This document shows positions 11,330 through 22,527 of a DNA stretch of 64,000 nt, in pieces (position 1 is the stretch's first letter; the number at the start of each line of letters is the position of its first letter). The position numbers and the translations under genes were made by a program. The notes under the pieces are model-generated. The model did not search any database. It was not told the DNA's origin and was given only the letters and a program-made list of their open reading frames with translations. The DNA is taken from contig NZ_BJFN01000001.1 in NCBI RefSeq assembly GCF_014189855.1, positions 124,001 through 188,000 on the forward strand, written 5' to 3'. The stretch comes from Buttiauxella sp. A111. GTDB taxonomy: Bacteria > Pseudomonadota > Gammaproteobacteria > Enterobacterales > Enterobacteriaceae.

Positions 11330-12223
11330 TCACACCAGCCCGGTGTTCACCCGCTTGCCTATCTCTTTAAGCTGCGAGTATTTTTCCAGCAGAGATGGAC
11401 CGTCATCAAGGCTCATGGCAAACATCCACATGTAGGTCATGACCGAGTAAATATGCCCGGCGTTCCCGACGCCCTTCACGGTCATTAGCCAAATGGTCGT
11501 GGCGAACAGGAACGCTGCGGCAATACCAATCGACAGATAGCCATACGCTTCCCGGTCAGACAACCGAATACGCACCCGCGCCAAAAAGTTGTAGTGCTTG
11601 TTGAGCGTGTTTTCACTGGCTGTCCCTACGAAACCCACTTCCTTTTCTAGCCGGTCATTGAGCTTCTCGTACAGCATTTCGTTTTTACGCGTGTAACTCG
11701 GTAAAAAGAGTGAGAAGAAGATCAGCACTCCAAGGCACGCAACACCCGCCCAGAACTCAATAGTCAGTAGCATAATCACCGCACCGATGATGGAAGCCAG
11801 CGACGTAATCAACAAAGGCAGGTGTGTTTCAAAGAAATTCACAAATTCACGTGACAACGTCACGCGGGCTGCAATGGTAGAATGACTATGATCGTCTTTA
11901 CGCTGCGCCAGGATAACCGGCACCGCCAGACCTGCGTAGATTCTGGCAAAAGTGCGCGTATCCATGCTGCGGCGTGCAGCACCTATCGCCCACATAATAA
12001 AAACCACCAGCGCATACAGCAACGCATGCAGCGATTGCCCCTTGATGATTGCGTTGATGGCAAAGCCCGCCATTAAGGGATACAGCAAGTAAACGACATT
12101 CTCAGCGACCACCAGCATCAGCGTAATAATCAGCTTTTTACTGTGGAGTTTTGCGAGTTTTTTTATGGTGTTCAATGCACCGAGCGAGGGTTTAATCTGC
12201 GCGGTTTGATGACAAGTAGACAT
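11330..12223 (-). CDS. ABC transporter six-transmembrane domain protein lacking an ATPase domain
   Basis: 297 aa, consisting only of an exporter-type transmembrane domain (ABC_membrane_3-like): about six hydrophobic helices between residues ~30 and ~270 with long cytosolic loops (TRKNEMLYEKLNDRLEKEV). No Walker A, signature or Walker B motif is present in this gene or in its neighbours, so the protein is a solo membrane domain; whether it works with an unlinked ATPase or has another role is unknown. Divergent from the tetR-type gene at 12318, sharing a 94-bp control region with two operators. ATG at 12221-12223. Confidence 0.8.
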   Translation of the reverse strand: MSTCHQTAQIKPSLGALNTIKKLAKLHSKKLIITLMLVVAENVVYLLYPLMAGFAINAIIKGQSLHALLYALVVFIMWAIGAARRSMDTRTFARIYAGLAVPVILAQRKDDHSHSTIAARVTLSREFVNFFETHLPLLITSLASIIGAVIMLLTIEFWAGVACLGVLIFFSLFLPSYTRKNEMLYEKLNDRLEKEVGFVGTASENTLNKHYNFLARVRIRLSDREAYGYLSIGIAAAFLFATTIWLMTVKGVGNAGHIYSVMTYMWMFAMSLDDGPSLLEKYSQLKEIGKRVNTGLV

Positions 12224-12248
12224 GACTTTAACTTCTTAGATTGTTATC

Positions 12249-12266
12249 CTTGAGCGGTTGCTCAAG
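12249..12266. promoter_or_regulatory. TetR operator O1 (perfect inverted repeat)
   Basis: CTTGAGC-GGTT-GCTCAAG, a perfect 7-bp inverted repeat with a 4-bp spacer. It is the first of two near-identical palindromes between the divergent ABC-membrane and TetR genes; closer to the membrane gene start (12223). Confidence 0.75.
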
Positions 12267-12281
12267 AATGAAAAGATTCTA

Positions 12282-12299
12282 TTTGAGCACTTGCTCAAA
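12282..12299. promoter_or_regulatory. TetR operator O2 (perfect inverted repeat)
   Basis: TTTGAGC-ACTT-GCTCAAA, a perfect 7-bp inverted repeat sharing the TTGAGC-N4-GCTCAA core with O1. The two centres are 33 bp apart, about three helical turns, so two regulator dimers could bind on one face of the DNA. It lies 18 nt upstream of the regulator start. Confidence 0.75.
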
Positions 12300-12317
12300 G
12301 TCAACGAAGGTACTGTG

Positions 12318-12896
12318 ATGAAAGAAAAAGCATCTGTTCTAAAAGAGAATATTCTTGATGCGGCGATCGTATTGTTCACCGAAAAAGGGGTGGAAAAGGT
12401 CACCACGCGCGAGTTAACAGAAAGTGTCGGCATTGCCCGTAGCCATATTTATCACTACTTTCCCGACTGGCAGACACTGTGTATTGAGGCCTTTTCACGC
12501 TTTATGTATGCGGAACTGGAATCTTTTACGCAAAAGACCCGCACCGTAGCCCCAGAACGCGGGCTGAACATTTTCATCGATGATTATTTGCCTGACCGCG
12601 CAGACGCGGCGTGGGAGTTGTACGGTTCATTGTGGCGTCTTGCGGTACATAACACGGTGTATGCCGATTTTGCGCTGCGGCTTACGGAAAAATGGGACGC
12701 TTTGCTGGCGAGCATTATCGAGGCGGGTATTCAAAGCGGAGTGTTTCGCCAGACCGATGTCGGGCGCGTTACCCGTCAGCTAGGATCGTTGCTGAACGGG
12801 TATTCGGATCAACTGATTATCGACAGTGCGCCGCTCGCACGCGAACAGGCATTGGAAGATATTCATGGCTTTGTAAGCCTGGCGCTATTGGCTTAA
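12318..12896 (+). CDS. TetR/AcrR family transcriptional regulator
   Basis: 192-aa regulator. An N-terminal helix-turn-helix is visible in residues ~10-55: ILDAAIVLFTEKGVEKVTTR, ELTESVGIARSHIYHYFPDW, the typical TetR pattern ending in YxYF; the C-terminal ligand domain is unassigned. Start chosen at the ATG at 12318 with GAAGG 7 nt upstream; a longer frame from 12258 would run through the second operator and is rejected. Probably represses itself and the divergent ABC-membrane gene through the palindromes at 12249-12266 and 12282-12299. Ligand unknown. Confidence 0.88.
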   Translation: MKEKASVLKENILDAAIVLFTEKGVEKVTTRELTESVGIARSHIYHYFPDWQTLCIEAFSRFMYAELESFTQKTRTVAPERGLNIFIDDYLPDRADAAWELYGSLWRLAVHNTVYADFALRLTEKWDALLASIIEAGIQSGVFRQTDVGRVTRQLGSLLNGYSDQLIIDSAPLAREQALEDIHGFVSLALLA

Positions 12897-12907: not shown

Positions 12908-13804
12908 CTACGGATAGGTAATCCCAGGCGGATTCACCTCAGACGTAGCCACTTCTTCGCCCTTTTCTCCCCAGCGATCCAGCACTTGTTGGTATTCACC
13001 GCGTTTCACCGTGCCATCCAGTGCAGCTTGCAGCGCGTATACCAACCCATTCCCTTTTTTGGTGGTAGTGGCAACATACGCCTTTTTCGGACCCAGCCCG
13101 ACAACCCGTGTGGTTCCGGTCAGTGCCGCTTTATAAGCTGCCACACTTTGCGGACCAAAAGTGGCATCCGCGCGACCCGCCTGAATATACAAATTGCCGG
13201 AAGCGTCATCCGTCAGATAAATCGGTTGTGCCTGTTTGCGCCCTTCGCGTTCATTAATTTCATTCCAACCCAACAGGATTTTTTCCTGATTGGTGCCAGA
13301 ACCTAAAATGATGCGTAAACCCGCAACGTCTGTTGGCCCGCTGATTTTCTGAATCGGACTGTCTGATTTTACCGAGAACGCCAGCGAATCGACGCGATAG
13401 GTCGCGAAATCGAATTTCGTTTTACGCTGCTCGGTTACCGCTATGTTCACCAGCGCCACATCGTAGCGCCCGGAAGTAATCCCAAGCGGCCAGTCTTCCC
13501 ATGCTGTCGGGACCAGTTTGAGTTTCAGCCCTAAACTATCGGCCAGCAGCCGCGCGATATCCGGATCGCTGCCGATCCTTGTGCGATTATCACTGGCCAG
13601 CATTGCCAGCGGCGGTGAGTTGAGCGCGGAAATCGCCACCGTTAGCGTACCCGGTTCAACAAACTGATAGCCCTGCGGAATTTTGCTGATAGCAATCGGG
13701 TCTTTAGCGGCATGAATCGGTTGTTCATTCGCCTTGAGATCAAGACTTCCTTGTGCGTAAAGCGTTGTGCTCATCATCAACAGCGCCAGTGGGACAAATT
13801 TCAT
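12908..13804 (-). CDS. Amino-acid ABC transporter substrate-binding protein (second of two in the operon)
   Basis: 298-aa periplasmic binding protein with a signal peptide (KFVPLALLMMSTTLYAQG). Family 3 solute-binding features: GSDPDIARLLADSLGLKLKL, WEDWPLGITSGRYDVALVNI and LRIILGSGTNQEKILLGW. It is clearly paralogous to the product at 16054-16989, so the importer has two binding proteins, as in the B. subtilis ytmJ/ytmK arrangement. Last gene of the eight-gene operon, 9 nt after the ATPase. Convergent with the TetR gene. Ligand probably an S-substituted cysteine or N-acetyl derivative (inference from context). Confidence 0.88.
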   Translation of the reverse strand: MKFVPLALLMMSTTLYAQGSLDLKANEQPIHAAKDPIAISKIPQGYQFVEPGTLTVAISALNSPPLAMLASDNRTRIGSDPDIARLLADSLGLKLKLVPTAWEDWPLGITSGRYDVALVNIAVTEQRKTKFDFATYRVDSLAFSVKSDSPIQKISGPTDVAGLRIILGSGTNQEKILLGWNEINEREGRKQAQPIYLTDDASGNLYIQAGRADATFGPQSVAAYKAALTGTTRVVGLGPKKAYVATTTKKGNGLVYALQAALDGTVKRGEYQQVLDRWGEKGEEVATSEVNPPGITYP

Positions 13805-13813
13805 GCCTGCTCC

Positions 13814-14608
13814 TTATAGAACCTTAGATAAAAACTGACGCGTTCGTGAGTGTTGCGGATGGTTAAGCACCTCGTCACTGCTACCTTGCTCCACAATTTT
13901 GCCGTCCACCATAAACACCACGTTATCCGCCACTTCCCGGGCAAAACCGATTTCATGCGTCACGACCACCAGCGTAGTACCTGAACGTGCCAGTTTTTTA
14001 ATCACATCGAGCACTTCCCCCACCAGCTCCGGGTCGAGTGCAGAAGTCGGCTCATCAAACAGCATCACGCGAGGACGCAGTGCCAGTGCACGAGCAATAG
14101 CAATACGCTGCTGTTGCCCGCCGGAAAGATGACGCGACCAGGCATCCGCTTTATTGCGTAACCCAACGACATCCAGCAACTCATAAGCCTGTTCAATCGC
14201 TTGCTTACGATTGAGCTGTTTATGGGCAATCGGTGCTTCAATCAGGTTTTCCAGTACCGTGAGATGCGGGAATAAATTGAAGTTCTGGAACACATAACCC
14301 ACGTTCACGCGCTGGCGCAGGATCTCCTTTTCTTTCAGTTCGTACAGCTTATCGCCCGCCTGACGATAGCCAATGTAATCGCCATCAATCTGAATAAAGC
14401 CTTCATCAACGCGCTCAAGGTGGTTAATGGCGCGCAGCAGCGTGGATTTACCCGAGCCAGACGGCCCCAGAATCACCGTCACGGAGCCGGGTTCCAGCTC
14501 CAGAGAAATGTTATCCAGTGCTTTATGGCGGCCAAAAAATTTACTGACGCCGGTAATCGAAATGTGGCCGGTTTGATTATGGCTTGTTTGGCTATGGAAG
14601 TGGGACAT
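13814..14608 (-). CDS. Amino-acid ABC transporter ATPase
   Basis: 264-aa polar amino-acid importer ATPase. Walker A GPSGSGKST, Q-loop YVFQNFNLFPHLTVLEN, signature LSGGQQQRIAIARAL, Walker B RVMLFDEPTSALD and the switch VVVTHEIGFA are all intact. The start is the ATG at 14606-14608 (MSHFHSQTS) with AGGAGG upstream; the open frame extends far into the permease gene but without support. Overlaps the permease gene by 17 nt, so translation is probably coupled. Confidence 0.93.
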   Translation of the reverse strand: MSHFHSQTSHNQTGHISITGVSKFFGRHKALDNISLELEPGSVTVILGPSGSGKSTLLRAINHLERVDEGFIQIDGDYIGYRQAGDKLYELKEKEILRQRVNVGYVFQNFNLFPHLTVLENLIEAPIAHKQLNRKQAIEQAYELLDVVGLRNKADAWSRHLSGGQQQRIAIARALALRPRVMLFDEPTSALDPELVGEVLDVIKKLARSGTTLVVVTHEIGFAREVADNVVFMVDGKIVEQGSSDEVLNHPQHSRTRQFLSKVL

Positions 14609-15530
14609 GAGCGGCCTCCTGAGTGTGCAGCACAGGCTGACGAGATGAGTGGCGAACTGGATTTTGCTGATTGATCGCCGAGCGGCGTTCACTGCGTGCC
14701 AGCCAACGTTCAACCAGATGCTGAATGAGGGACAACACGCTGGTGATAACCAGATACCACGCCGCACCGACCATCAGCAGTGGAATAACTTCCTGGGTGC
14801 GGTTGTAGATCATCTGAATGGTGTAGAACAGCTCCGGCATTGCCAGCACGTAAACCATCGCCGTGCCTTTCGCGAGACTGATAATCTCGTTGAAACCGGA
14901 CGGTAAAATAGTGCGTAGCGCCTGTGGCAAAATAATGCGCAGCGTGCGTCGCCATGCGGGTAATCCTAATGCCGCTGCCGCTTCATACTGGCCGTGATCG
15001 ACACCCAAAAAGCCGCCGCGAATAATCTCAGCGGTATAAGCGCTTTGCACAAGCGTCAGCCCCACCACAGCGGTAGAAAACTGCCCGAGCACGTTAATCG
15101 TCTGGTAACTTCCCCAGCTTATCTGAGTAAACGGGATACCAATTGAGAGCGTGTCGTAGAGATACGAGAAGTTATAGAGAATGATCAGCACCACGATCAG
15201 CGGCAGCGATCGAAACAGCCAGATATAACCCCACGCCAGGCTATTGAGCAGCCATGACGATGAAAGCCTGGCGAGCGCCAGCAAACCACCCAATATCACG
15301 CTGAGCACGGTGCCAATCAGCGTCAACAGTAAGGTTTGCGCCAGCCCCTCAAGGATGACTGGGTCGAAGAACCAGCGCGCAAACACGCTCCACTCCCAGC
15401 GTGGGTTAAACGCCACCGACTGAATAACAATCGCCAGCACAAACAGTGCGACAACCGCGCCCAGTGTTCGTAGCGGATAACGCGCCGGAACGACTTTAAT
15501 GGTTGATGGTGGGGTTGATAGTCTAGTCAT
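14592..15530 (-). CDS. Amino-acid ABC transporter permease
   Basis: 312-aa HisM/GlnP-family inner-membrane permease. Hydrophobic helices from ~25 to ~270; the conserved permease loop is visible as GQYEAAAALGLPAWRRTLRI followed by ILPQALRTILPSGFNEIISL (EAA motif), and the family start segment LEGLAQTLLLTLIGTVLSVI is present. Start placed at the ATG 15528-15530 (GAGG 8 nt upstream); another ATG two codons earlier touches the Shine-Dalgarno. Single permease gene, so it likely works as a homodimer with the ATPase at 13814-14608. Confidence 0.92.
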   Translation of the reverse strand: MTRLSTPPSTIKVVPARYPLRTLGAVVALFVLAIVIQSVAFNPRWEWSVFARWFFDPVILEGLAQTLLLTLIGTVLSVILGGLLALARLSSSWLLNSLAWGYIWLFRSLPLIVVLIILYNFSYLYDTLSIGIPFTQISWGSYQTINVLGQFSTAVVGLTLVQSAYTAEIIRGGFLGVDHGQYEAAAALGLPAWRRTLRIILPQALRTILPSGFNEIISLAKGTAMVYVLAMPELFYTIQMIYNRTQEVIPLLMVGAAWYLVITSVLSLIQHLVERWLARSERRSAINQQNPVRHSSRQPVLHTQEAAHVPLP

Positions 15531-15539
15531 GATCATTCC

Positions 15540-16043
15540 TCAGGCCGTTTTGCTCAGACGAGCCAGCGTTTTGGTAAAACGCAGGCGCCCGTCGAACGGT
15601 GCCACGCTGTACTCTTCGGGGTTGCGTTGAATATCGAACTGCGGTTGATAGCCGAGGCTCAGATAAAGCTTCACCGCTTCCGGCTGACGAAAACCGGTGG
15701 TCAGATAAACGTGGCTGTAACCGGCAATCTGCGCCCTGCTTTCCAGTTCACGCATCATGCGCTGCGCAATCCCTTGTTTGCGCAATGAGGAATGAGTCCA
15801 GATACGTTTGATTTCAGCGGTATGTTCATCGAATGGCTTATACGCACCGGTGGCAATAATCTCGCCATCTCGTTCCAGAACAATGAATAACCCTTGCGGT
15901 GCCAGATACCACTCGGTGAGTTCCACTTCGGCGTCACGGGAAAAATAGTCCCCATAACGCGCCTCATACTCGCCAAATAAACCGGTAATAATCGGCTGGA
16001 GCTCCGGTGCTTCCGGGGAAACATCACGAAATTGTTCGCGCAT
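15540..16043 (-). CDS. GNAT family N-acetyltransferase (YxeL/SnaA-like role predicted)
   Basis: 167-aa acetyl-CoA-dependent acetyltransferase. GNAT core visible: AEIKRIWTHSSLRKQGIAQR (acetyl-CoA loop R-K-Q-G-I-A) and HVYLTTGFRQPEAVKLYLSL followed by GYQP. Start ATG 16041-16043 (MREQFRDVSPE) with AAGGAG. Lying between a binding-protein gene and a permease gene in the operon, it is predicted to N-acetylate an S-substituted cysteine before monooxygenase attack, the role of SnaA/YxeL in B. subtilis. Substrate is inferred from context, not seen. Confidence 0.82.
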   Translation of the reverse strand: MREQFRDVSPEAPELQPIITGLFGEYEARYGDYFSRDAEVELTEWYLAPQGLFIVLERDGEIIATGAYKPFDEHTAEIKRIWTHSSLRKQGIAQRMMRELESRAQIAGYSHVYLTTGFRQPEAVKLYLSLGYQPQFDIQRNPEEYSVAPFDGRLRFTKTLARLSKTA

Positions 16044-16053
16044 AGACCGCTCC

Positions 16054-16989
16054 TTAATCGCCCAGACCATCAGGGTTAATTTCGGATGCAGGGATTTTCT
16101 CAACGCTTTCCCCCCAGCGGCTCAGTACTTTGTTGTAATCGCCGTTTTTAATAACGCCATTGAGCGCGGTTTGTACCGGTTCAACCAGGCCGCTCTCTTT
16201 TTTCAGCGTAACAGCGATATGCGCTGCTTTCGGCCAACCGCCATCAACTACGCCAACTAACTTTGTTTTCTGATTGAGCGCTGCTTTCCATGCGCCGATG
16301 ACGTTCGGGCCAAAGTACGCGTCAGCTCGGCCAGACTGTAAAGCCAGGGTTTGTGCGGCATCGTCTTTGGTGTAAACCGGCGTGAAAGGTTTAAGCCCTT
16401 TCTTCAGGTTTGCTTCGTTCCACGCCAACAAAATAGATTCCTGATTAGTTCCGGAGCCAACGATAATGCGCAATCCGGCGATATCTTCTGCTTTCTCAAT
16501 CGTTTTAAATGGGCTGTCTGCTTTCACGTAGAAACCGAGCGAGTCTTTACGGTAGGTCGCAAAGTCGAATTTCTGTTTGCGATCTTTAGTCACAGTAATA
16601 TTGCTGATGGCCGCGTCGTATTTGCCCGACGCCACACCTAGCGGCCAGTCCTCCCATGACGTCGGCACCACGTTGAGCTCAAGCCCTAAGCTGTCTGCCA
16701 CCAGACGGGCAATATCCACTTCGCTACCGAGCAGCGTTTTGTTGTCGTCAGAAAATACCGTCAGCGGCGGTTGATTGAGCCCGGCGACCGCCACAGTGAA
16801 TTTACCCGGTACGGCAAAGCGATAATCTTTTGGCAGCTGTGCGACAGCCTGTGGGTTCACCACGGTATTGATGGGCGTTTTATTGGCTTCAATACTGACG
16901 CCGGTGCCGTTAATCGTGACGTCCTGTGCCAGTGTTTGTGCAGAGGAAAGTGCCAGAGCGATTGCAAGGATGAGCGATGATTTTTGCAT
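16054..16989 (-). CDS. Amino-acid ABC transporter substrate-binding protein (first of two)
   Basis: 311-aa periplasmic binding protein, signal peptide QKSSLILAIALALSSAQTLA. Contains GSEVDIARLVADSLGLELNV, WEDWPLGVASGKYDAAIS and LRIIVGSGTNQESILLAW, in register with the paralogue at 12908-13804 (including the WEDWPLG and GSGTNQE blocks). Follows the NtaA/SnaA-type monooxygenase by 43 nt and precedes the acetyltransferase by 10 nt. Duplicate binding proteins suggest two related ligands for one permease-ATPase pair. Confidence 0.88.
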   Translation of the reverse strand: MQKSSLILAIALALSSAQTLAQDVTINGTGVSIEANKTPINTVVNPQAVAQLPKDYRFAVPGKFTVAVAGLNQPPLTVFSDDNKTLLGSEVDIARLVADSLGLELNVVPTSWEDWPLGVASGKYDAAISNITVTKDRKQKFDFATYRKDSLGFYVKADSPFKTIEKAEDIAGLRIIVGSGTNQESILLAWNEANLKKGLKPFTPVYTKDDAAQTLALQSGRADAYFGPNVIGAWKAALNQKTKLVGVVDGGWPKAAHIAVTLKKESGLVEPVQTALNGVIKNGDYNKVLSRWGESVEKIPASEINPDGLGD

Positions 16990-17032
16990 AGCAGGTTCTC
17001 TTTTATTGTTGTGTGTTTTAAATGGTTGGTTT

Positions 17033-18355
17033 TTAAAGTGATGACTTTTTAAATTGATAGCTCGGTTCAGCTAACCCCAACGTTTCACGCAGCGTCGTGC
17101 CCGGATATTCCTTGCGGAATAAACCACGCGCTTGCAGCACCGGCACCACTTCATCCACAAAGCGTGGGAAGGTATCGGGTGTACCGCCCTGAATGATAAA
17201 ACCGTCGGCGGCATGGCTTTCGAACCACTGCTGTAATCCGTCAGCGACTTGTTGGGCGGTGCCCGCAAAACGCGGTCGTGGGGATGCCGCTTCCAGTGCG
17301 ACCTGGCGCAAGGTCAGATTGCGTTCACGGGCGTTACGTTTAATTTCATCAGTGGTACTGCGGAAGCTGTTCTGCCCCAGGTCGCCGATATCAGGGAACG
17401 GCTCATCAAGCGGGTATTGGCTGAAATCGTGATGCTCGAAATAGCGGCCAAGATAATTCAGTGCGTCTTCTATCGACACCAGTGCCGCAGTGGTTTGATA
17501 TTGGTGTTCTACGTCTTCAGCATCGCTGCCGACTATCACACTCACGCCCTGGAATATTTTCAAATCATCGTTATGGCGACCATGACTCTCCAGTTGCCCT
17601 TTTACATCACGATAAAAATGCTGCGCTTCTTCAAGCGTGTCGTGATGAGTAAAAATAGCGTCAGCGTGATGTGCAGCTAATTTCTTACCGTCATCTGATG
17701 CGCCAGCCTGGAATACAATTGGCCGACCTTGCGGTGTGCGGGAAATATTCAGCGGCCCTGCAACTTTAAAGAAATCGCCATGATGATTCAGCGTGTGCAA
17801 TTTTTTAGGGTCAAAGAAATGTCCGCTGGCTTTATCACGAATAAACGCGTCTTCTTCCCAGGAGTCCCATAGCCCTTTCACGACATCCAGATATTCATCG
17901 GCAATGCGATAACGCAGTGCATGTTCTGGATGTTTGTCACGAGAGAAGTTCTTTGCCGAGCCTTCCAGCGGTGAAGTCACCACGTTCCAGCCCGCGCGCC
18001 CTTTGCTTAAATGGTCAAGGCTGGCAAACTGGCGCGCCACGGTGAAGGGTTCGCTATAGGATGTCGACAGCGTCCCGACCAACCCTAAATGCGTGGTGAC
18101 GCTGGCTAATGCCGACAGCACCGTTAATGGCTCGAATCTATTCAAAAAATGAGGAATAGATTTTTCATTGATATATAAGCCGTCAGCGACAAATAAAAAA
18201 TCGAGTTTGCCCTGCTCGGCTTTTAAAGCTGTCTCTTTTACAAAATCAAAATTAATACTGGCATCGGGAATAGCCGCCGGATGGCGCCATGCCGACATAT
18301 TTCCGGAAGCGCCATGCAGGATGGTTCCCAGACGCAATTGTCTGTTGTTTGACAT
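17033..18355 (-). CDS. FMN-dependent monooxygenase, NtaA/SnaA/DszA/SoxA family (CmoJ/YxeK-like)
   Basis: 440-aa class C flavin monooxygenase of the bacterial luciferase superfamily. Family blocks: [19 protein letters not shown] at the start, [40 protein letters not shown] and [19 protein letters not shown]. Length and motifs match the long subgroup (~440 aa) that oxidises nitrilotriacetate, dibenzothiophene sulfone or N-acetyl-S-alkylcysteines. It needs reduced FMN from a separate reductase, which is not encoded nearby. Third gene of the operon, 17 nt after the M20 deacylase; the context supports an S-C bond-cleaving role. Confidence 0.87.
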
Positions 18356-18372
18356 ATTTATGCTCCGAATAT

Positions 18373-19509
18373 TTAGTTTGCGAGTAGCGCCTGTTCAGCA
18401 AGCGTGGCGAAATATCTTGCTGCATCTTCAATTAATGCTTCATCCGGATTAAAAGCCGAATGATGTAACCCGTAAGTGCTGTTGCTGCCAATGCTGACAA
18501 ACGCACCAGGGATCGTTTGCAAATAAACGGCAAAATCTTCGCCGCCCATATGCAGTTCAGAGGTTTGTGTCTGGTAACCCGCATCTTTTGCGGCCTGCAT
18601 CGCAAATGCCGCCCATTTATCATCGTTATTCAATGTGATTGGCCCGTTGAACCATTCCACTTCAATTTGTGCGCCAAACGCACTGGCTAAACCGGCTGCA
18701 ATCTCACTGATGCGCTTCTCTACCTGTTGCTGAATATCGGCGCGATGCGTGCGCACTGTTCCTTCCAGTTCGACACTTTCCGGCAACACATTCCAGGTAT
18801 TTCCCCCTTGTATTCGCGTCACACTGACCACGACAGAATCCAGCGTATCGATATTGCGACTGGCAATAGTTTGCAATGCCAACACCAGCTGGCTGGCAAT
18901 TACAATGGCGTCATTACCTTCTTGTGGTCGTGCGGCATGAGCGCCTTTGCCCCGCACCCGTAACACGAAACGATCGACGTTGGCATAGAATGCGCCGCCT
19001 CTTGTGGCAAAAGTGCCTACCGGTAAGCCAGGCTCGTTATGCATGCCAAAAATAGCGGACACGTTTTCCAGCGCACCAGCCTTAATCAGCGCCTTCGCCC
19101 CCGTGAAGTTTTCTTCCGCCGGTTGAAACAACAGACGGACGCGCCCGGATAATTTCGCCTCCCGTTCTTTTAACAGCAGTGCGGCCCCGAGCATGACGCT
19201 GCTGTGAACATCATGCCCGCAGGCATGCATCACGCCATCGCGTCGTGAACTAAACGGCACGCCACTGGTTTCCTGAATGGGCAGCGCGTCAATATCGGCA
19301 CGCAGCGCAATCACCTTTTCCCCTTGCCCGACTTCTGCCACCACTCCGGTTGCAAGTTGATAAGGCAACAGTCGCAATCCAGCTGTCTCCAGCCAGTGAC
19401 GTATGCGCGAGGTGGTCGCAACTTCCTGCCCGGATAACTCCGGGTTTTGGTGCAACTCGCGTCGCCAGTCGATGAGCTGTTCTTTGAATGTCTGCGGGGC
19501 GAATGTCAT
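18373..19509 (-). CDS. M20 family amidohydrolase (N-acyl-amino-acid deacylase)
   Basis: 378-aa metallopeptidase-family amidohydrolase. Metal-site motifs: [12 protein letters not shown] (Cys/His ligands), [15 protein letters not shown] (Glu), [12 protein letters not shown] (His) and [11 protein letters not shown]. The start is the ATG 19507-19509 ([11 protein letters not shown]) with AAGGGGAAG upstream; the longer frame overlaps the preceding gene out of frame. Related to hippurate hydrolase/IAA-amino-acid hydrolases and to SndA/YxeP, which remove the acetyl group to free cysteine. In this operon deacetylation of an N-acetylcysteine derivative is the expected job. Confidence 0.88.
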
Positions 19510-19519
19510 TGGCTTCCCC

Positions 19520-20542
19520 TTACCAGGCTTCATGTTCGGCAGCAAAATCAGACACTGGCTTCGTCTGCTCAACGCCTGCCAACAAACGCAACGACTGTAA
19601 ACGTGCGATGGGATCGGTAATGGGGGTATCAATAATGAATTCGTCGATACCAAATTCCTGGCTCAGTGCCGCAAGACCCGCATGAACCGTCTGTGCGGTA
19701 CCTTTCAGCAACGAAGGTTCGCGGCGTTCAATACGTTTGATAGCACTGCCCGCCTGGCGAGAAAATGCGTGCGCCTGGGCAACGCTTGCAACGCTGACAC
19801 GCTGGCTGTTTTCCAGCTCAACGCTCCAGATTTCCACCTGGCTTGCCAGTTCAGCTGCTTTTTCTTCGTCCGCGGCGACAATCACCTGCACGGCCACCAC
19901 CGTGTCGCGCTGGCATTTACTGCTCCAGGCAGTAAGCACCTGGCGCATTAAGTTTTTATCGCCATTCAGGTGAGCGGCATAAACGAAGTTCCAGTCAAGG
20001 CTTGCAGCAAGGGCTGCACTTTCAAGGCTTGCCCCCAGCAAAAAGCGATCGGCGCCGCGCGCAGGAACCGGTGTGGCTCGTAAGGTTTCTTCTTCGTCTG
20101 GTGCGGCAGGCAACGTAAGCCAGTTATCAAGCTCGGTGAGTTTGTCGGCAAACGACGCTTTATCCTGCCCACCGCGCTGCAACGCCTGGGTAGACAGGGG
20201 TAAACCGCCTGGCGCTTTTCCCACACCGAGATCAACACGCCCTGGCGCAAGGCTTGCCAACAGATTGAAGTTTTCCGCCACTTTGTAAGGGCTGTAATGT
20301 TGCAACATCACCCCACCTGAACCGACACGAATATGCTGGGTTTGCCCGACTATCCATGCAATAAGCAGTTCCGGCGACGGGCTTGCCAGCCTTGAGGTGT
20401 TATGGTGCTCGGCAATCCAGAAGCGGTGATAACCCCAGGCCTCTGCAAGTTGAGCCAGATGCAGCGTGTGTTTCAGGGCGTCGCCAGGAGTCTCGTCCTT
20501 CGCGACCGGGCTTTTATCCAGCAGGCTGATTCGATATGACAT
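19520..20542 (-). CDS. Luciferase-like flavin oxidoreductase, MsnO8 family (CmoO/YtmO-like)
   Basis: 340-aa LLM-class protein of the short subgroup. Visible blocks: YHRFWIAEHHNTSRLASPSP near residues 37-56, VGSGGVMLQHYSPYKVAENF, LAPGRVDLGVGKAPGG and IDEFIIDTPITDPIARLQSL. First gene of the operon on the minus strand; the second, longer monooxygenase is two genes downstream. A pairing of a ~335-aa and a ~440-aa flavin monooxygenase also occurs in the B. subtilis ytm S-alkylcysteine operon (YtmO, YtnJ). ATG at 20540-20542. Confidence 0.86.
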   Translation of the reverse strand: MSYRISLLDKSPVAKDETPGDALKHTLHLAQLAEAWGYHRFWIAEHHNTSRLASPSPELLIAWIVGQTQHIRVGSGGVMLQHYSPYKVAENFNLLASLAPGRVDLGVGKAPGGLPLSTQALQRGGQDKASFADKLTELDNWLTLPAAPDEEETLRATPVPARGADRFLLGASLESAALAASLDWNFVYAAHLNGDKNLMRQVLTAWSSKCQRDTVVAVQVIVAADEEKAAELASQVEIWSVELENSQRVSVASVAQAHAFSRQAGSAIKRIERREPSLLKGTAQTVHAGLAALSQEFGIDEFIIDTPITDPIARLQSLRLLAGVEQTKPVSDFAAEHEAW

Positions 20543-20855
20543 GCAACAAACTCGTGTTGATTAACATGCCTTCATTAATAAGGTTTCCGTTCATATGAGT
20601 GAAACAATTAATTTACATTTCGTTAGCCAAAAACTGGATAAGCCAGCTTTCGCCGTCACCAGATAGCTCATAAAGGGTCTAAAATTATTAATCCAGGAAC
20701 AAAAAAGACTCTTTTTGACCCATGGCATTGTAAAAAGTCCGTATATGAACCATTTTTTAAATAAAATAGAATCTAAGGGTTATTTTTGATTTATACTGAC
20801 ATCAATGGACCATATATAGAATATTTACGGATTTAAAATTAAATTTGGGTCACAT
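20543..20855. promoter_or_regulatory. Divergent intergenic region between the sulfur-salvage operon and hipB
   Basis: 313 bp, AT-rich, no gene. The hipB side contains four copies of a TGRNYCA heptamer: 20716-20722 (TGACCCA), 20746-20752 (TGAACCA), 20806-20812 (TGGACCA) and 20846-20852 (TGGGTCA), offset by 30, 60 and 40 bp, i.e. multiples of about one helical turn. They are candidate HipB half-sites or operators. A possible hipB promoter is CTGACA (20796-20801) and TAGAAT (20817-20822) with a short 15-bp spacer that contains the third copy; the fourth sits at the ribosome-binding position of hipB. No clear promoter was found for the minus-strand operon. Confidence 0.45.
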
Positions 20856-21179
20856 ATGAACTACGACAATGACACGCTCGCAGACAAACTGCATGCCATG
20901 AGCGAATTATTGAATGACGTAAAAAAAGCAGTGACGTTACGTGCGCAAGAATCAGATAGCCTGATCGAAGATCAGGTTATCGCGACCTCAGCACAACTGG
21001 GGCAAAAACTGAACCTGCGCCGCAAAGCGCTGGATATCGATCTTGCGACTCTTGAGCTACAAACCGGGGTGTCAGCTTCAACGCTCAAACGTCTGTTTAA
21101 AGATCCCGAGCAGGTCAAATTTGGCACCGTGTTACGCGTAGCTGAAGCATTAGGTGTGAAGCTATGCGCCGCCGTGTAG
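20856..21179 (+). CDS. hipB: HipB-like antitoxin, helix-turn-helix protein
   Basis: 107-aa DNA-binding antitoxin of a three-component HipBST system. A Cro/C1-type helix-turn-helix lies in residues ~45-100: LGQKLNLRRKALDIDLATLE, LQTGVSASTLKRLFKDPEQ and VLRVAEALGVKL. In HipBST systems HipB binds the operon promoter and HipT but is not the main kinase inhibitor. ATG at 20856; there is no good Shine-Dalgarno, only GGGTC. The last 16 nt overlap hipS, so the genes are coupled. Likely autoregulated through the TGRNYCA repeats just upstream. Confidence 0.85.
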   Translation: MNYDNDTLADKLHAMSELLNDVKKAVTLRAQESDSLIEDQVIATSAQLGQKLNLRRKALDIDLATLELQTGVSASTLKRLFKDPEQVKFGTVLRVAEALGVKLCAAV

Positions 21180-21478
21180 AGGTGTGGTTATACGGCGAGC
21201 CGGTGGGCGAATTGCGCCAGGATGACGACGGTTATGAATTTAGTTATCGCGCTGACTATATCGGCCCGCCGCTGTCGCTGAGCTTGCCGGTGCGTGTCGG
21301 CCGTTTTCGCAGCCAAACCTTACCCCCTTTCTTCTCCTCTCTGGCGCCCGAGGGGTGGTTGAAAAAGCGTTACAGCCAACTGCAACAGCGCGACGAACAT
21401 GACCTTCTCGGGATGCTTATCGATAACGGTAAAAACCTGATAGGTGCAGTGCAACTGGTCAACATTCAGGAGGATTAA
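21164..21478 (+). CDS. hipS: HipS-like antitoxin (HipA N-subdomain-1 protein)
   Basis: 104-aa protein corresponding to the N-terminal subdomain of classical HipA encoded as its own gene. Contains LYGEPVGELRQDDDGYEFSY, PLSLSLPVRVGRF and PFFSSLAPEGWLKKRYSQL. In E. coli O127 HipBST, HipS is the antitoxin that blocks the HipT kinase; a conserved tryptophan (Trp65 as I recall) enters the kinase active site, and a tryptophan is at position 65 here (PEGW). Overlaps hipB by 16 nt and hipT by one base (TAATG). Confidence 0.85.
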   Translation: MRRRVEVWLYGEPVGELRQDDDGYEFSYRADYIGPPLSLSLPVRVGRFRSQTLPPFFSSLAPEGWLKKRYSQLQQRDEHDLLGMLIDNGKNLIGAVQLVNIQED

Positions 21479-22527
21479 TGATGGGATTACCCCCGCGTTG
21501 CCACATTCTTTTAACTCCGCTGGTGCTGGCCAAAGAGCAAGAGTCCGGTTATTCGACCAAAGGTCTGAGACATCTGACTGGCTCCGGCAAAGTGAACCCT
21601 AAACTGAGTTTTACGCGCAGTGAATTTATTCATGAATTGCCGAAAGCCCAGCGCGGCATGAGTATCTCAGGGTATCAACCTAAGCTTCAGATGGTTGTGC
21701 AGGATGGGGAATTTGCCGTGGTTGAACACCAGGGTGAGTACATTCTCAAACCCTCTCCCGCGGAATTCCCCCATCTGGCCGAGAATGAACACGCCACCAT
21801 GACGCTGATGGCTCGGCTGGGGTTTGACGTGCCGCCACACGGCCTGGTGAGTTTTGCGCCCGAGCAGGATGGCCCCCGCGAATTAGCCTTTGTTATCCGC
21901 CGTTTTGACCGGGACAGACAAACCGGTGCGGCCATTCATCAGGAACAGCTTGATGCGGCGATGAATGTGGGCGAAAAGTACGGGAAAACGGGCAGTGACG
22001 GAAAGCAGTATGTGAGTTATCAGCAGTTGGCTGAGTTTCTGACTCAACATGTGAATAGCAACATCGCGTTTAAAATCGATCTGTTCCGACGCATTGCGTA
22101 TGCCTATTTGTTGGGTAACAACGATATGCACCTGCGTAATTTCGGCTTGATTCACCCGCGAATCGGCGAGCCGTCGCTCTCACCGGTTTATGATTTTGTT
22201 TCTGTTGCACCCTATCCCGCTATTTTTAGCTCGGGGTTTATGGCACTGCCGCTATTATCATGTGAAGAAGGCGACCGCGAACTGGCACCGGGTTTTAAAA
22301 CGGCTTATGGCGAATATCTCGGTATGGATTTTCATGCGCTCGGTTTGAGTATGGGCATGACGGATAAACTCATCGTTAAATTGCTTCACGATTTGCAAAA
22401 AGAGAGTCGCATTGTGGATGCGGTATACCGTGATTCGTTTATGCCCGTAAAAGATGTGGAAGCAACGCTGCGTTGTTACCACCAGCGGCTGGATCGGTTG
22501 ATGCGTCTGGATGAAGCGCAGATTTAA
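21478..22527 (+). CDS. hipT: HipT-like serine/threonine kinase toxin
   Basis: 349-aa HipA-family kinase lacking the N-terminal subdomain, which is split off as hipS. The Gly-rich-loop autophosphorylation motif is Ser62-Ile-Ser64 in GMSISGYQPKLQMV, the two-serine SIS form of HipT rather than the single serine of HipA. Other kinase features: Lys91 in YILKPS, the catalytic loop GNNDMHLRNFGLI (Asp216) and the metal-binding Asp239 in VYDFVS. In the known system HipT phosphorylates tryptophanyl-tRNA synthetase; the target here is inferred. Two adjacent ATGs (21478, 21481) share AGGAGG. Ends just before the tsr terminator hairpin. Confidence 0.9.
   Translation: MMGLPPRCHILLTPLVLAKEQESGYSTKGLRHLTGSGKVNPKLSFTRSEFIHELPKAQRGMSISGYQPKLQMVVQDGEFAVVEHQGEYILKPSPAEFPHLAENEHATMTLMARLGFDVPPHGLVSFAPEQDGPRELAFVIRRFDRDRQTGAAIHQEQLDAAMNVGEKYGKTGSDGKQYVSYQQLAEFLTQHVNSNIAFKIDLFRRIAYAYLLGNNDMHLRNFGLIHPRIGEPSLSPVYDFVSVAPYPAIFSSGFMALPLLSCEEGDRELAPGFKTAYGEYLGMDFHALGLSMGMTDKLIVKLLHDLQKESRIVDAVYRDSFMPVKDVEATLRCYHQRLDRLMRLDEAQI

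What the first reader, a model, noticed from the sequence alone, without database searches (positions are those of the whole stretch)
12908..20542. Eight-gene sulfur-salvage operon resembling the S-alkyl/S-succinyl-cysteine routes of Bacillus
Seen: one strand, tightly packed genes for a short LLM oxidase, M20 deacylase, long NtaA-type FMN monooxygenase, binding protein, GNAT acetyltransferase, permease, ATPase and a second binding protein. Known: B. subtilis uses N-acetylation, flavin monooxygenase attack and deacetylation for S-methyl/alkylcysteine (ytm operon, with two binding proteins and two monooxygenases) and for S-(2-succino)cysteine (yxe operon). Inferred: this operon is a gammaproteobacterial version of that logic. 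The dual binding proteins and dual oxygenases suggest two related substrates. No dedicated regulator or FMN reductase is linked.
Basis: partly seen in the sequence, partly recalled or inferred. Interest (0 to 1): 0.75.

Follow-up and report, generated by a model that had tools for sequence, protein, structure and literature searches.

The report
S-alkylcysteine salvage operon in enterobacteria
This eight-gene operon very probably lets Buttiauxella and many related gut and plant bacteria import cysteine whose sulfur carries an unwanted chemical group, strip that group off with two flavin enzymes and reuse the cysteine, as is known in Bacillus.

Summary
In detail: eight co-directional, tightly packed genes at 12908-20542 (minus strand). 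The long monooxygenase is 56.4% identical, without a gap over 429 residues, to B. subtilis YtnJ (CmoJ). In a 75-row tree it shares a 37-row clade with it (SH-aLRT 93); 33 of these 37 have a CmoO-type gene within 9 kb, against 1 of 38 outside. The M20 protein is 49.5% identical to YxeP, a tested N-acetylcysteine deacetylase. Seven core genes keep one order in 77 of 80 enterobacterial loci; none matched in the E. coli collection. Two Rhizobium clusters add an FMN reductase. Best reading: uptake, N-acetylation, S-oxidation (CmoO), C-S cleavage (CmoJ), deacetylation to cysteine. The S-succinocysteine route is less likely, though YxeK could not be compared. 'Two binding proteins, two substrates' is weak: 17 of 80 loci lack only the second. 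New here: a conserved upstream block (core in 72 of 79 upstream regions) resembles the region before ssuE, which suggests sulfur-starvation control by CysB or Cbl (inferred; other sulfur genes tested do not show it). A new member of a known kind; no function was tested.

The parts
19520..20542 (-). cmoO-like: short LLM flavin monooxygenase (MsnO8 family, 340 aa); proposed S-oxygenase of N-acetyl-S-alkylcysteine
   Evidence: TIGR03558 337 bits, cut-off 167; CmoO-type gene beside CmoJ in 33 of 37 clade rows
18373..19509 (-). M20 amidohydrolase (378 aa from ATG 19509; ATG 19533 also possible); proposed N-acetylcysteine deacetylase
   Evidence: TIGR01891 380 bits; 183 of 370 residues identical to B. 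subtilis YxeP 1ysj, HACGHD and FQPAEE kept; start
17033..18355 (-). cmoJ-like: long NtaA-type FMN monooxygenase (440 aa); proposed sulfoxide C-S cleaving enzyme
   Evidence: TIGR03860 556 bits; 242 of 429 residues identical, no gap, to B. subtilis YtnJ; same clade
16054..16989 (-). SBP1: periplasmic family-3 solute-binding protein (311 aa)
   Evidence: PF00497 86 bits; carboxylate Arg137 kept, ammonium Asp position is Pro228
15540..16043 (-). GNAT acetyltransferase (167 aa); proposed S-alkylcysteine N-acetyltransferase
   Evidence: PF00583 67 bits; AlphaFold model pLDDT 86, GNAT fold neighbours
14592..15536 (-). amino-acid type ABC permease (314 aa)
   Evidence: PF00528 73 bits; best NCBIfam match is a cystine permease, PRK15100, 134 bits, below its cut-off of 300
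13814..14608 (-). ABC ATPase (ATG 14608 behind AGGAGG)
   Evidence: best NCBIfam match is cystine TcyN, PRK11264, 303 bits, below its cut-off of 406; start
12908..13804 (-). SBP2: second family-3 binding protein, 53% identical to SBP1; the only gene missing in 17 of 80 loci
20601..20644 (-). conserved upstream block (core AAATGTAAATTAATTGTTTC at 20601-20620), possible activator site
   Evidence: core with 0-3 mismatches in 72 of 79 upstream regions, 58 bases before the start in 69; similar block before ssuE

Best explanation
This is a CmoO/CmoJ-type S-alkylcysteine salvage operon. Binding proteins SBP1 and SBP2 feed one cystine-type ABC importer with S-substituted cysteines or their sulfoxides (inferred). 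The GNAT protein N-acetylates them (inferred from the conserved company it keeps). The short LLM enzyme (CmoO-like) oxidises the thioether to a sulfoxide. The long LLM enzyme (CmoJ-like) cleaves the sulfoxide C-S bond oxidatively to an aldehyde and N-acetylcysteine sulfenic acid. Cellular thiols or a redoxin reduce the sulfenic acid (not encoded here). The M20 enzyme then deacetylates N-acetylcysteine to cysteine. Reduced FMN would come from an FMN reductase in trans, for example SsuE. A conserved operator similar to one before ssuE would switch the operon on in sulfur starvation through CysB or Cbl (inferred). Homology and linkage are shown; every catalytic step in this organism is inferred.
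For: CmoJ-like: 565 bits and 242/429 gapless identity to YtnJ, in one 37-row clade with it (SH-aLRT 93, quick tree). CmoO-type neighbour within 9 kb in 33 of 37 rows of that clade (32 of 36 without the YtnJ row, whose label I set by hand) against 1 of 38 outside, that one being a second paralogue in a counted locus. M20: 183/370 identity to YxeP, whose N-acetylcysteine deacetylase activity is published (PMC12757645). Seven core genes in one order in 77 of 80 loci. Two Rhizobium clusters carry the same genes plus msuE FMN reductase and a DsbA-like gene; Haematobacter adds a cysteine synthase family gene; a Niallia locus has FMN reductase (PF03358, 87 bits), CmoO-like and CmoJ-like genes in a row. 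Importer subunits are nearest to cystine families, below cut-off; SBP1 fold neighbours include YtmK and cystine receptors. A block before ssuE matches the upstream element: score 10.5, 0 of 300 shuffles as high.
Against: No substrate or enzyme was tested. B. subtilis CmoO, its GNAT, YtnL and YxeK could not be fetched, so CmoO and GNAT are placed by family and linkage only. Inside the clade two rows (L051, L164) have none of CmoO, GNAT and M20, two (L049, L052) have no CmoO, and several lack M20. Just outside it, four loci of one genus and Paracoccus L141 carry 56-57% identical proteins without CmoO, GNAT or M20. No CmoI-type redoxin is linked. The upstream core is missing in 7 of 79 upstream regions, one of them by a single mismatch. 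tauA and the two sulfate-binding-protein genes show no such block, and cysD and cysJ score no better than control loci. Three 3-mismatch copies of the core in the genome lie near genes not obviously of sulfur metabolism.
Confidence: 0.8

Rival explanations
1. An S-(2-succino)cysteine (yxe/scm-type) operon: GNAT acetylates S-succinocysteine, the long monooxygenase acts as YxeK, the M20 enzyme deacetylates, and the short LLM enzyme is accessory.
For: GNAT, FMN monooxygenase, ABC importer and M20 are also the yxe parts (PMC9706529, part 1 of 6 and passages read); the M20 protein's best solved relative is YxeP itself.
Against: The long enzyme is in the YtnJ clade; a second, CmoO-type oxygenase is conserved with it, which the yxe route does not use; none of the eight genes is a lyase. 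YxeK itself could not be compared.
Confidence: 0.1
2. A salvage operon mainly for natural plant S-alkylcysteine sulfoxides (methiin, alliin): the sulfoxide enters ready-made, CmoJ is the key enzyme and CmoO only widens the range to thioethers.
For: Plant-associated genera dominate the plasmid records with a CmoO-like gene (Rhizobium 126, Pantoea 74 of 254 records; a collection with its own bias); CmoJ's substrate is the N-acetylated sulfoxide (PMC10863075, parts 1 and 2 of 3 read).
Against: CmoO is kept in 33 of 37 clade rows and 79 of 80 enterobacterial loci; Klebsiella, Enterobacter and Citrobacter are among the hosts. No ligand data. This is a substrate variant of the best explanation, not a different mechanism, so the two confidences overlap.
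Confidence: 0.25
3. The operon serves another organosulfur or xenobiotic amide, and the resemblance to CmoO/CmoJ is one of family only.
For: NtaA-type enzymes act on many compounds; four loci of one genus and L141 keep a 56-57% relative in other contexts.
Against: Two oxygenases, GNAT, M20 and an amino-acid importer are kept together in rhizobial, other proteobacterial and enterobacterial loci, and CmoO-CmoJ also in a Bacillaceae locus.
Confidence: 0.08

Closest known systems
B. subtilis ytm/ytn operon, CmoO-CmoJ S-alkylcysteine salvage (chemistry from PMC10863075; operon make-up and gene names recalled)
   Same: CmoJ 56% identical without gaps and in one clade; MsnO8-type second oxygenase; GNAT; M20 enzyme; family-3 ABC importer with two binding proteins
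   Different: One permease gene instead of two; no linked redoxin and no linked LysR regulator; different gene order (Bacillus side recalled); possible control from an operator similar to that before ssuE
B. subtilis yxe/scm operon for S-(2-succino)cysteine (PMC9706529, PMC12757645)
   Same: GNAT, FMN monooxygenase, ABC importer, M20 protein 49.5% identical to YxeP
   Different: Two oxygenases instead of one; no further gene in the place of YxeQ; oxygenase in the YtnJ clade
Rhizobial clusters on plasmids (L140, L142), not named in the records
   Same: CmoO-like, CmoJ (57%), M20, GNAT, permease/ATPase, two binding proteins
   Different: Permease and ATPase annotated as one protein; added third LLM enzyme, DsbA-like protein and msuE FMN reductase

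Membership tests
CmoO-CmoJ S-alkylcysteine salvage (ytm type) | CmoJ orthologue | tested here: met
   242/429 identity to YtnJ, no gap; same clade, SH-aLRT 93
CmoO-CmoJ S-alkylcysteine salvage (ytm type) | CmoO orthologue beside it | tested here: inconclusive
   MsnO8 family at twice the cut-off and the right linkage; B. subtilis CmoO not available for direct comparison; 40.5% to a Niallia protein beside a CmoJ
CmoO-CmoJ S-alkylcysteine salvage (ytm type) | S-alkylcysteine N-acetyltransferase | tested here: inconclusive
   GNAT superfamily and fold only; specificity unknown
CmoO-CmoJ S-alkylcysteine salvage (ytm type) | N-acetylcysteine deacetylase of the M20 family | tested here: met
   183/370 identity to YxeP with metal-site motifs kept; activity not tested
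CmoO-CmoJ S-alkylcysteine salvage (ytm type) | Linked redoxin for the sulfenic acid step (recalled for Bacillus) | tested here: not met
An accessory, not taken as defining
CmoO-CmoJ S-alkylcysteine salvage (ytm type) | Growth on S-alkylcysteine as sulfur source | not testable with these tools
   needs culture
yxe/scm S-(2-succino)cysteine operon | YxeK orthologue (over 50% identity in PMC9706529) | not tested
   YxeK sequence not available in the tools; the enzyme here groups with YtnJ
yxe/scm S-(2-succino)cysteine operon | S-(2-succino) lyase replacing YxeK | tested here: not met
   no lyase-class gene among the eight; the rest of the genome was not searched for one

The most novel reading that the evidence does not exclude
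The importer takes up ready N-acetylated S-alkylcysteines (mercapturates, which animals excrete), so that gut and soil enterobacteria recycle the sulfur of host detoxification products; the GNAT would serve only conjugates made inside the cell. Basis: in both binding proteins the acidic residue that holds the alpha-ammonium in canonical family-3 proteins (role recalled) is a Pro (47 of 47 aligned sequences), while the carboxylate-binding Arg is kept. Against: YtmK, recalled as part of a cystine importer, also lacks the acid (Thr), as do 3 of 13 other family-3 proteins of the genome, so a free amino acid can still be the ligand.
Probability: 0.12. Interest if true: 0.7.

Novelty: new member of a known kind. 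Interest (0 to 1): 0.45.

Why it matters
The CmoO/CmoJ route is described as widespread in soil bacteria (PMC10863075) but was worked out in Bacillus. Finding the full operon, possibly wired to sulfur starvation, in some eighteen named genera of Enterobacterales (Klebsiella, Enterobacter, Citrobacter, Pantoea and others) makes a likely but unstudied cysteine source of gut and plant bacteria directly testable, and proposes functions for four enzymes now annotated by superfamily.

Tried and rejected
Rejected: the adjacent TetR gene as the operon's regulator. It stands divergent to an ABC membrane gene in 9 of 9 Buttiauxella loci (L036-L044), and in 4 other loci the pair lies near the operon in another orientation.

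Weakened: 'missing ammonium Asp means N-acetyl ligand', because YtmK lacks it too. It is kept only as the novel case.

Led nowhere: GNAT fold search (generic acetyltransferases in the 50 rows shown of 1,307). A general sulfur regulon from the upstream block: of five further sulfur genes (tauA, cysJ, two sulfate-binding-protein genes, cysD) none scores above the control loci. Literature searches listed no paper on this operon in enterobacteria; the library holds open-licence papers only, listings were capped, and the three primary papers asked for are not held. Passages of PMC5270733, PMC6302742 and PMC12581299 added nothing on it.

Not possible: comparison with B. subtilis CmoO, YtmI, YtnL and YxeK; the control genomes are only reported as ringing.
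Full report
WHAT IS THERE. Eight genes lie on the minus strand at 12908-20542. In order of transcription they are: short LLM monooxygenase (MsnO8 family), M20 amidohydrolase, long NtaA-type FMN monooxygenase, family-3 binding protein SBP1, GNAT acetyltransferase, ABC permease, ABC ATPase, and second binding protein SBP2. Two starts can be refined: M20 from ATG 19509 and ATPase from ATG 14608, each behind a good ribosome-binding site. Gaps are then -17 to +43 bases (coordinates). The window is from a Buttiauxella-like genome: the closest named loci, 91-94% identical in the long monooxygenase, are Buttiauxella.

CONSERVATION. A scan of one genome per species with the long monooxygenase found 402 encoding stretches and kept the best 80. 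In 77 of these 80 the seven core genes (CmoO, M20, CmoJ, SBP1, GNAT, permease, ATPase) lie in this order on one strand within 6.6-6.8 kb; in one of the 77, L106, the CmoJ and GNAT frames are each in two pieces. By presence (hits over 45% identity), 60 of the 80 have all eight genes, 17 lack only SBP2, 2 (Tatumella) lack only M20, and 1 is a 3.9 kb contig fragment. The record titles name 18 genera of Enterobacterales for the full seven-gene set, Tatumella for the set without M20, and three doubtful labels that I leave aside (counted by eye). In 60 relatives searched, 9 of 10 of the same genus carry a copy of at least 91% identity, 7 of 25 of the rest of the family one of at least 70%, and 0 of 24 of the rest of the order do, the best there being 40%. 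In the E. coli collection of 20,395 records there was no match, either to the operon DNA in the near mode or to the long monooxygenase gene in the distant mode, which reaches about 65-70% DNA identity.

THE LONG MONOOXYGENASE IS A CmoJ. Its best solved relative is B. subtilis YtnJ (565 bits): 242 of 429 aligned residues are identical, without a gap. That YtnJ is the CmoJ of PMC10863075 is recalled. A tree of 75 sequences was made from 18 of the 100 fetched enterobacterial loci L036-L135, from L136-L184 and L187, from the window and from YtnJ, with up to two CmoJ-like proteins per locus (quick method, LG+G4). A 37-row clade (SH-aLRT 93, just under the starred level) holds the window protein, YtnJ, a Niallia protein, and proteins of rhizobia, other proteobacteria and enterobacteria. 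33 of these 37 have a CmoO-type gene within 9 kb (32 of 36 if the YtnJ row, whose label I set by hand, is left out). The four without are L049 and L052 (GNAT and M20 present) and L051 and L164 (none of the three). Outside the clade it is 1 of 38, a second paralogue in a locus already counted. Among the 20 fetched loci L165-L184, 38-50% identical, none has a CmoO-type gene or GNAT and one has an M20 gene. Against a simple identity rule, four loci of one genus (L152, L154, L155, L158) and Paracoccus L141 carry 56-57% identical proteins without the other genes and fall just outside the clade. L154 has a sulfonate-type binding protein and other ORFs instead (identified by eye).

THE OTHER ENZYMES. 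M20 is 183 of 370 residues identical to YxeP. YxeP (ScmP), YhaA and YtnL are tested N-acetylcysteine deacetylases (PMC12757645: abstract, first part of Results, and Discussion read). The short LLM enzyme matches TIGR03558 at 337 bits against a cut-off of 167. The GNAT model (pLDDT 86) has the fold, but its neighbours are generic. The permease and ATPase match cystine families best, below their cut-offs.

MECHANISM. PMC10863075 (parts 1 and 2 of 3 read) describes the Bacillus route: N-acetylation, sulfoxidation by CmoO, sulfoxide C-S cleavage by CmoJ to an aldehyde and N-acetylcysteine sulfenic acid, reduction, and deacetylation. Each enzyme step has a candidate here except the reduction. Reduced FMN needs a partner: none is linked here, but the genome has ssuE (239.6 bits), and the equivalent clusters of two Rhizobium plasmids carry msuE and a DsbA-like gene next to the same set. 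A Haematobacter cluster adds a cysteine synthase family gene. A Niallia plasmid has an FMN reductase (PF03358, 87 bits), a CmoO-like (40.5%) and a CmoJ-like gene (56% to the window, 63% to YtnJ) in a row, without M20 and with another kind of importer nearby. These linkages point to cysteine as the product.

BINDING PROTEINS. SBP1 and SBP2 are 53% identical. I aligned 34 SBP1 and 13 SBP2 sequences, chosen from the 81 and 64 available. In all 47 the position of the acidic residue that canonical family-3 proteins use for the alpha-ammonium group is Pro; the role of that residue is recalled from glutamine-binding protein. Of the 19 other family-3 matches in the genome, 13 shorter than 420 residues were aligned and 10 of these have Asp there; YtmK has Thr. 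The carboxylate Arg is present in every row printed. The 34 SBP1 rows have Thr and the 13 SBP2 rows Ala at a second contact position. This makes different ligand preferences possible, but it does not establish two substrates. The AlphaFold model of SBP1 (pLDDT 83) is nearest to amino-acid and cystine binding proteins, YtmK included (rank 21 of the 50 shown; TM-score by target length 0.79).

CONTROL. The 260 bases before the first gene are unlike between genera except for the last 100 or so (16 of 79 sequences). A 20-base core, AAATGTAAATTAATTGTTTC, occurs with at most 3 mismatches in 72 of 79 upstream regions, 58 bases before the start in 69 of them. It is missing in L123 (4 mismatches) and in L128, L129, L132, L133, L134 and L135. 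1 of 3,950 single-base-shuffled regions reaches the limit. Relatedness inflates the count, but the surroundings have diverged. The core occurs once in the window (0.01 expected) and once exactly in the genome; three 3-mismatch copies lie near a Crp-like gene, between sucD-like and cydA-like genes, and near a porin-like gene (identified by eye), with 1 match for the reversed control pattern. A 44-base weight matrix from 28 distinct sites scores 10.5 in the 320 bases before ssuE, against a mean of -30 in 300 shuffles, none as high; the best other score in the 64 kb window is -9.9. In 95 kb of own-genome control loci the best are 2.6 and -4.3, both in loci chosen for the core. With a softer matrix ssuE scores 22.4, those two loci 15.4 and 15.1 and the next 9.2. 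The regions before tauA and two sulfate-binding-protein genes score below zero, cysD 3.5 and cysJ 9.4, so these are no better than controls. CysB sites lie 50-60 bases before the transcription start as paired 19-base half-sites with a very weak consensus, and Cbl is a CysB-like protein needed for alkanesulfonate use (PMC11329422, passages). CysB or Cbl is therefore the likeliest hand on this operon, but this is an inference from one matching promoter.

YXE ALTERNATIVE. PMC9706529 (part 1 of 6 and passages read) defines yxe loci by YxeK, YxeL, YxeMNO, YxeP and YxeQ, with a lyase in place of YxeK in some. Here there is a second oxygenase, no lyase among the eight genes, and no ninth gene. YxeK could not be fetched, so this alternative is unlikely rather than excluded.

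NOVELTY. No paper on this operon in enterobacteria appeared in the listings, within an open-licence library. The chemistry is known and the pathway is said to be widespread in soil bacteria, so this is a new member of a known kind, with a possible new control and a wider host range.

Noticed in passing
L139 2162-8104 (Candidatus Stammera capleta plasmid pStNi2, CP144792.1): The unannotated 9.4 kb plasmid of this beetle symbiont carries a PEP mutase (PF13714), an NtaA-type monooxygenase, a homocitrate/isopropylmalate-synthase-like enzyme, aconitase-like large and small subunits and a methyltransferase-like ORF, in an order like the phosphonate cluster of a Pantoea plasmid (L143). Described only.
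   Followed up: partly
window 20856-22527: HTH gene (107 aa), a separate HipA N-terminal domain protein (PF13657, 104 aa) and a HipA C-terminal kinase-like protein (PF07804, 349 aa) in a row: looks like a three-part HipBST toxin-antitoxin system (name recalled). HTH gene in 9 of 9 and kinase-like gene in 8 of 9 Buttiauxella loci beside the operon.
   Followed up: partly
window 11330-12896: TetR regulator divergent from an ABC_membrane_3 gene; the pair is conserved beside the operon in 9 of 9 Buttiauxella loci but is not part of it.
   Followed up: partly
L131 1-6820 (Tatumella ptyseos): Next to an operon copy without M20 lies an oligopeptide-type ABC importer (by eye) with another LLM monooxygenase (PF00296), possibly a second organosulfur cluster.
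   Followed up: partly
L154, L155, L152, L158: One genus keeps a 56-57% CmoJ relative without the cmo genes; in L154 a sulfonate-type binding protein gene precedes it (by eye), a possible different desulfurisation unit.
   Followed up: partly
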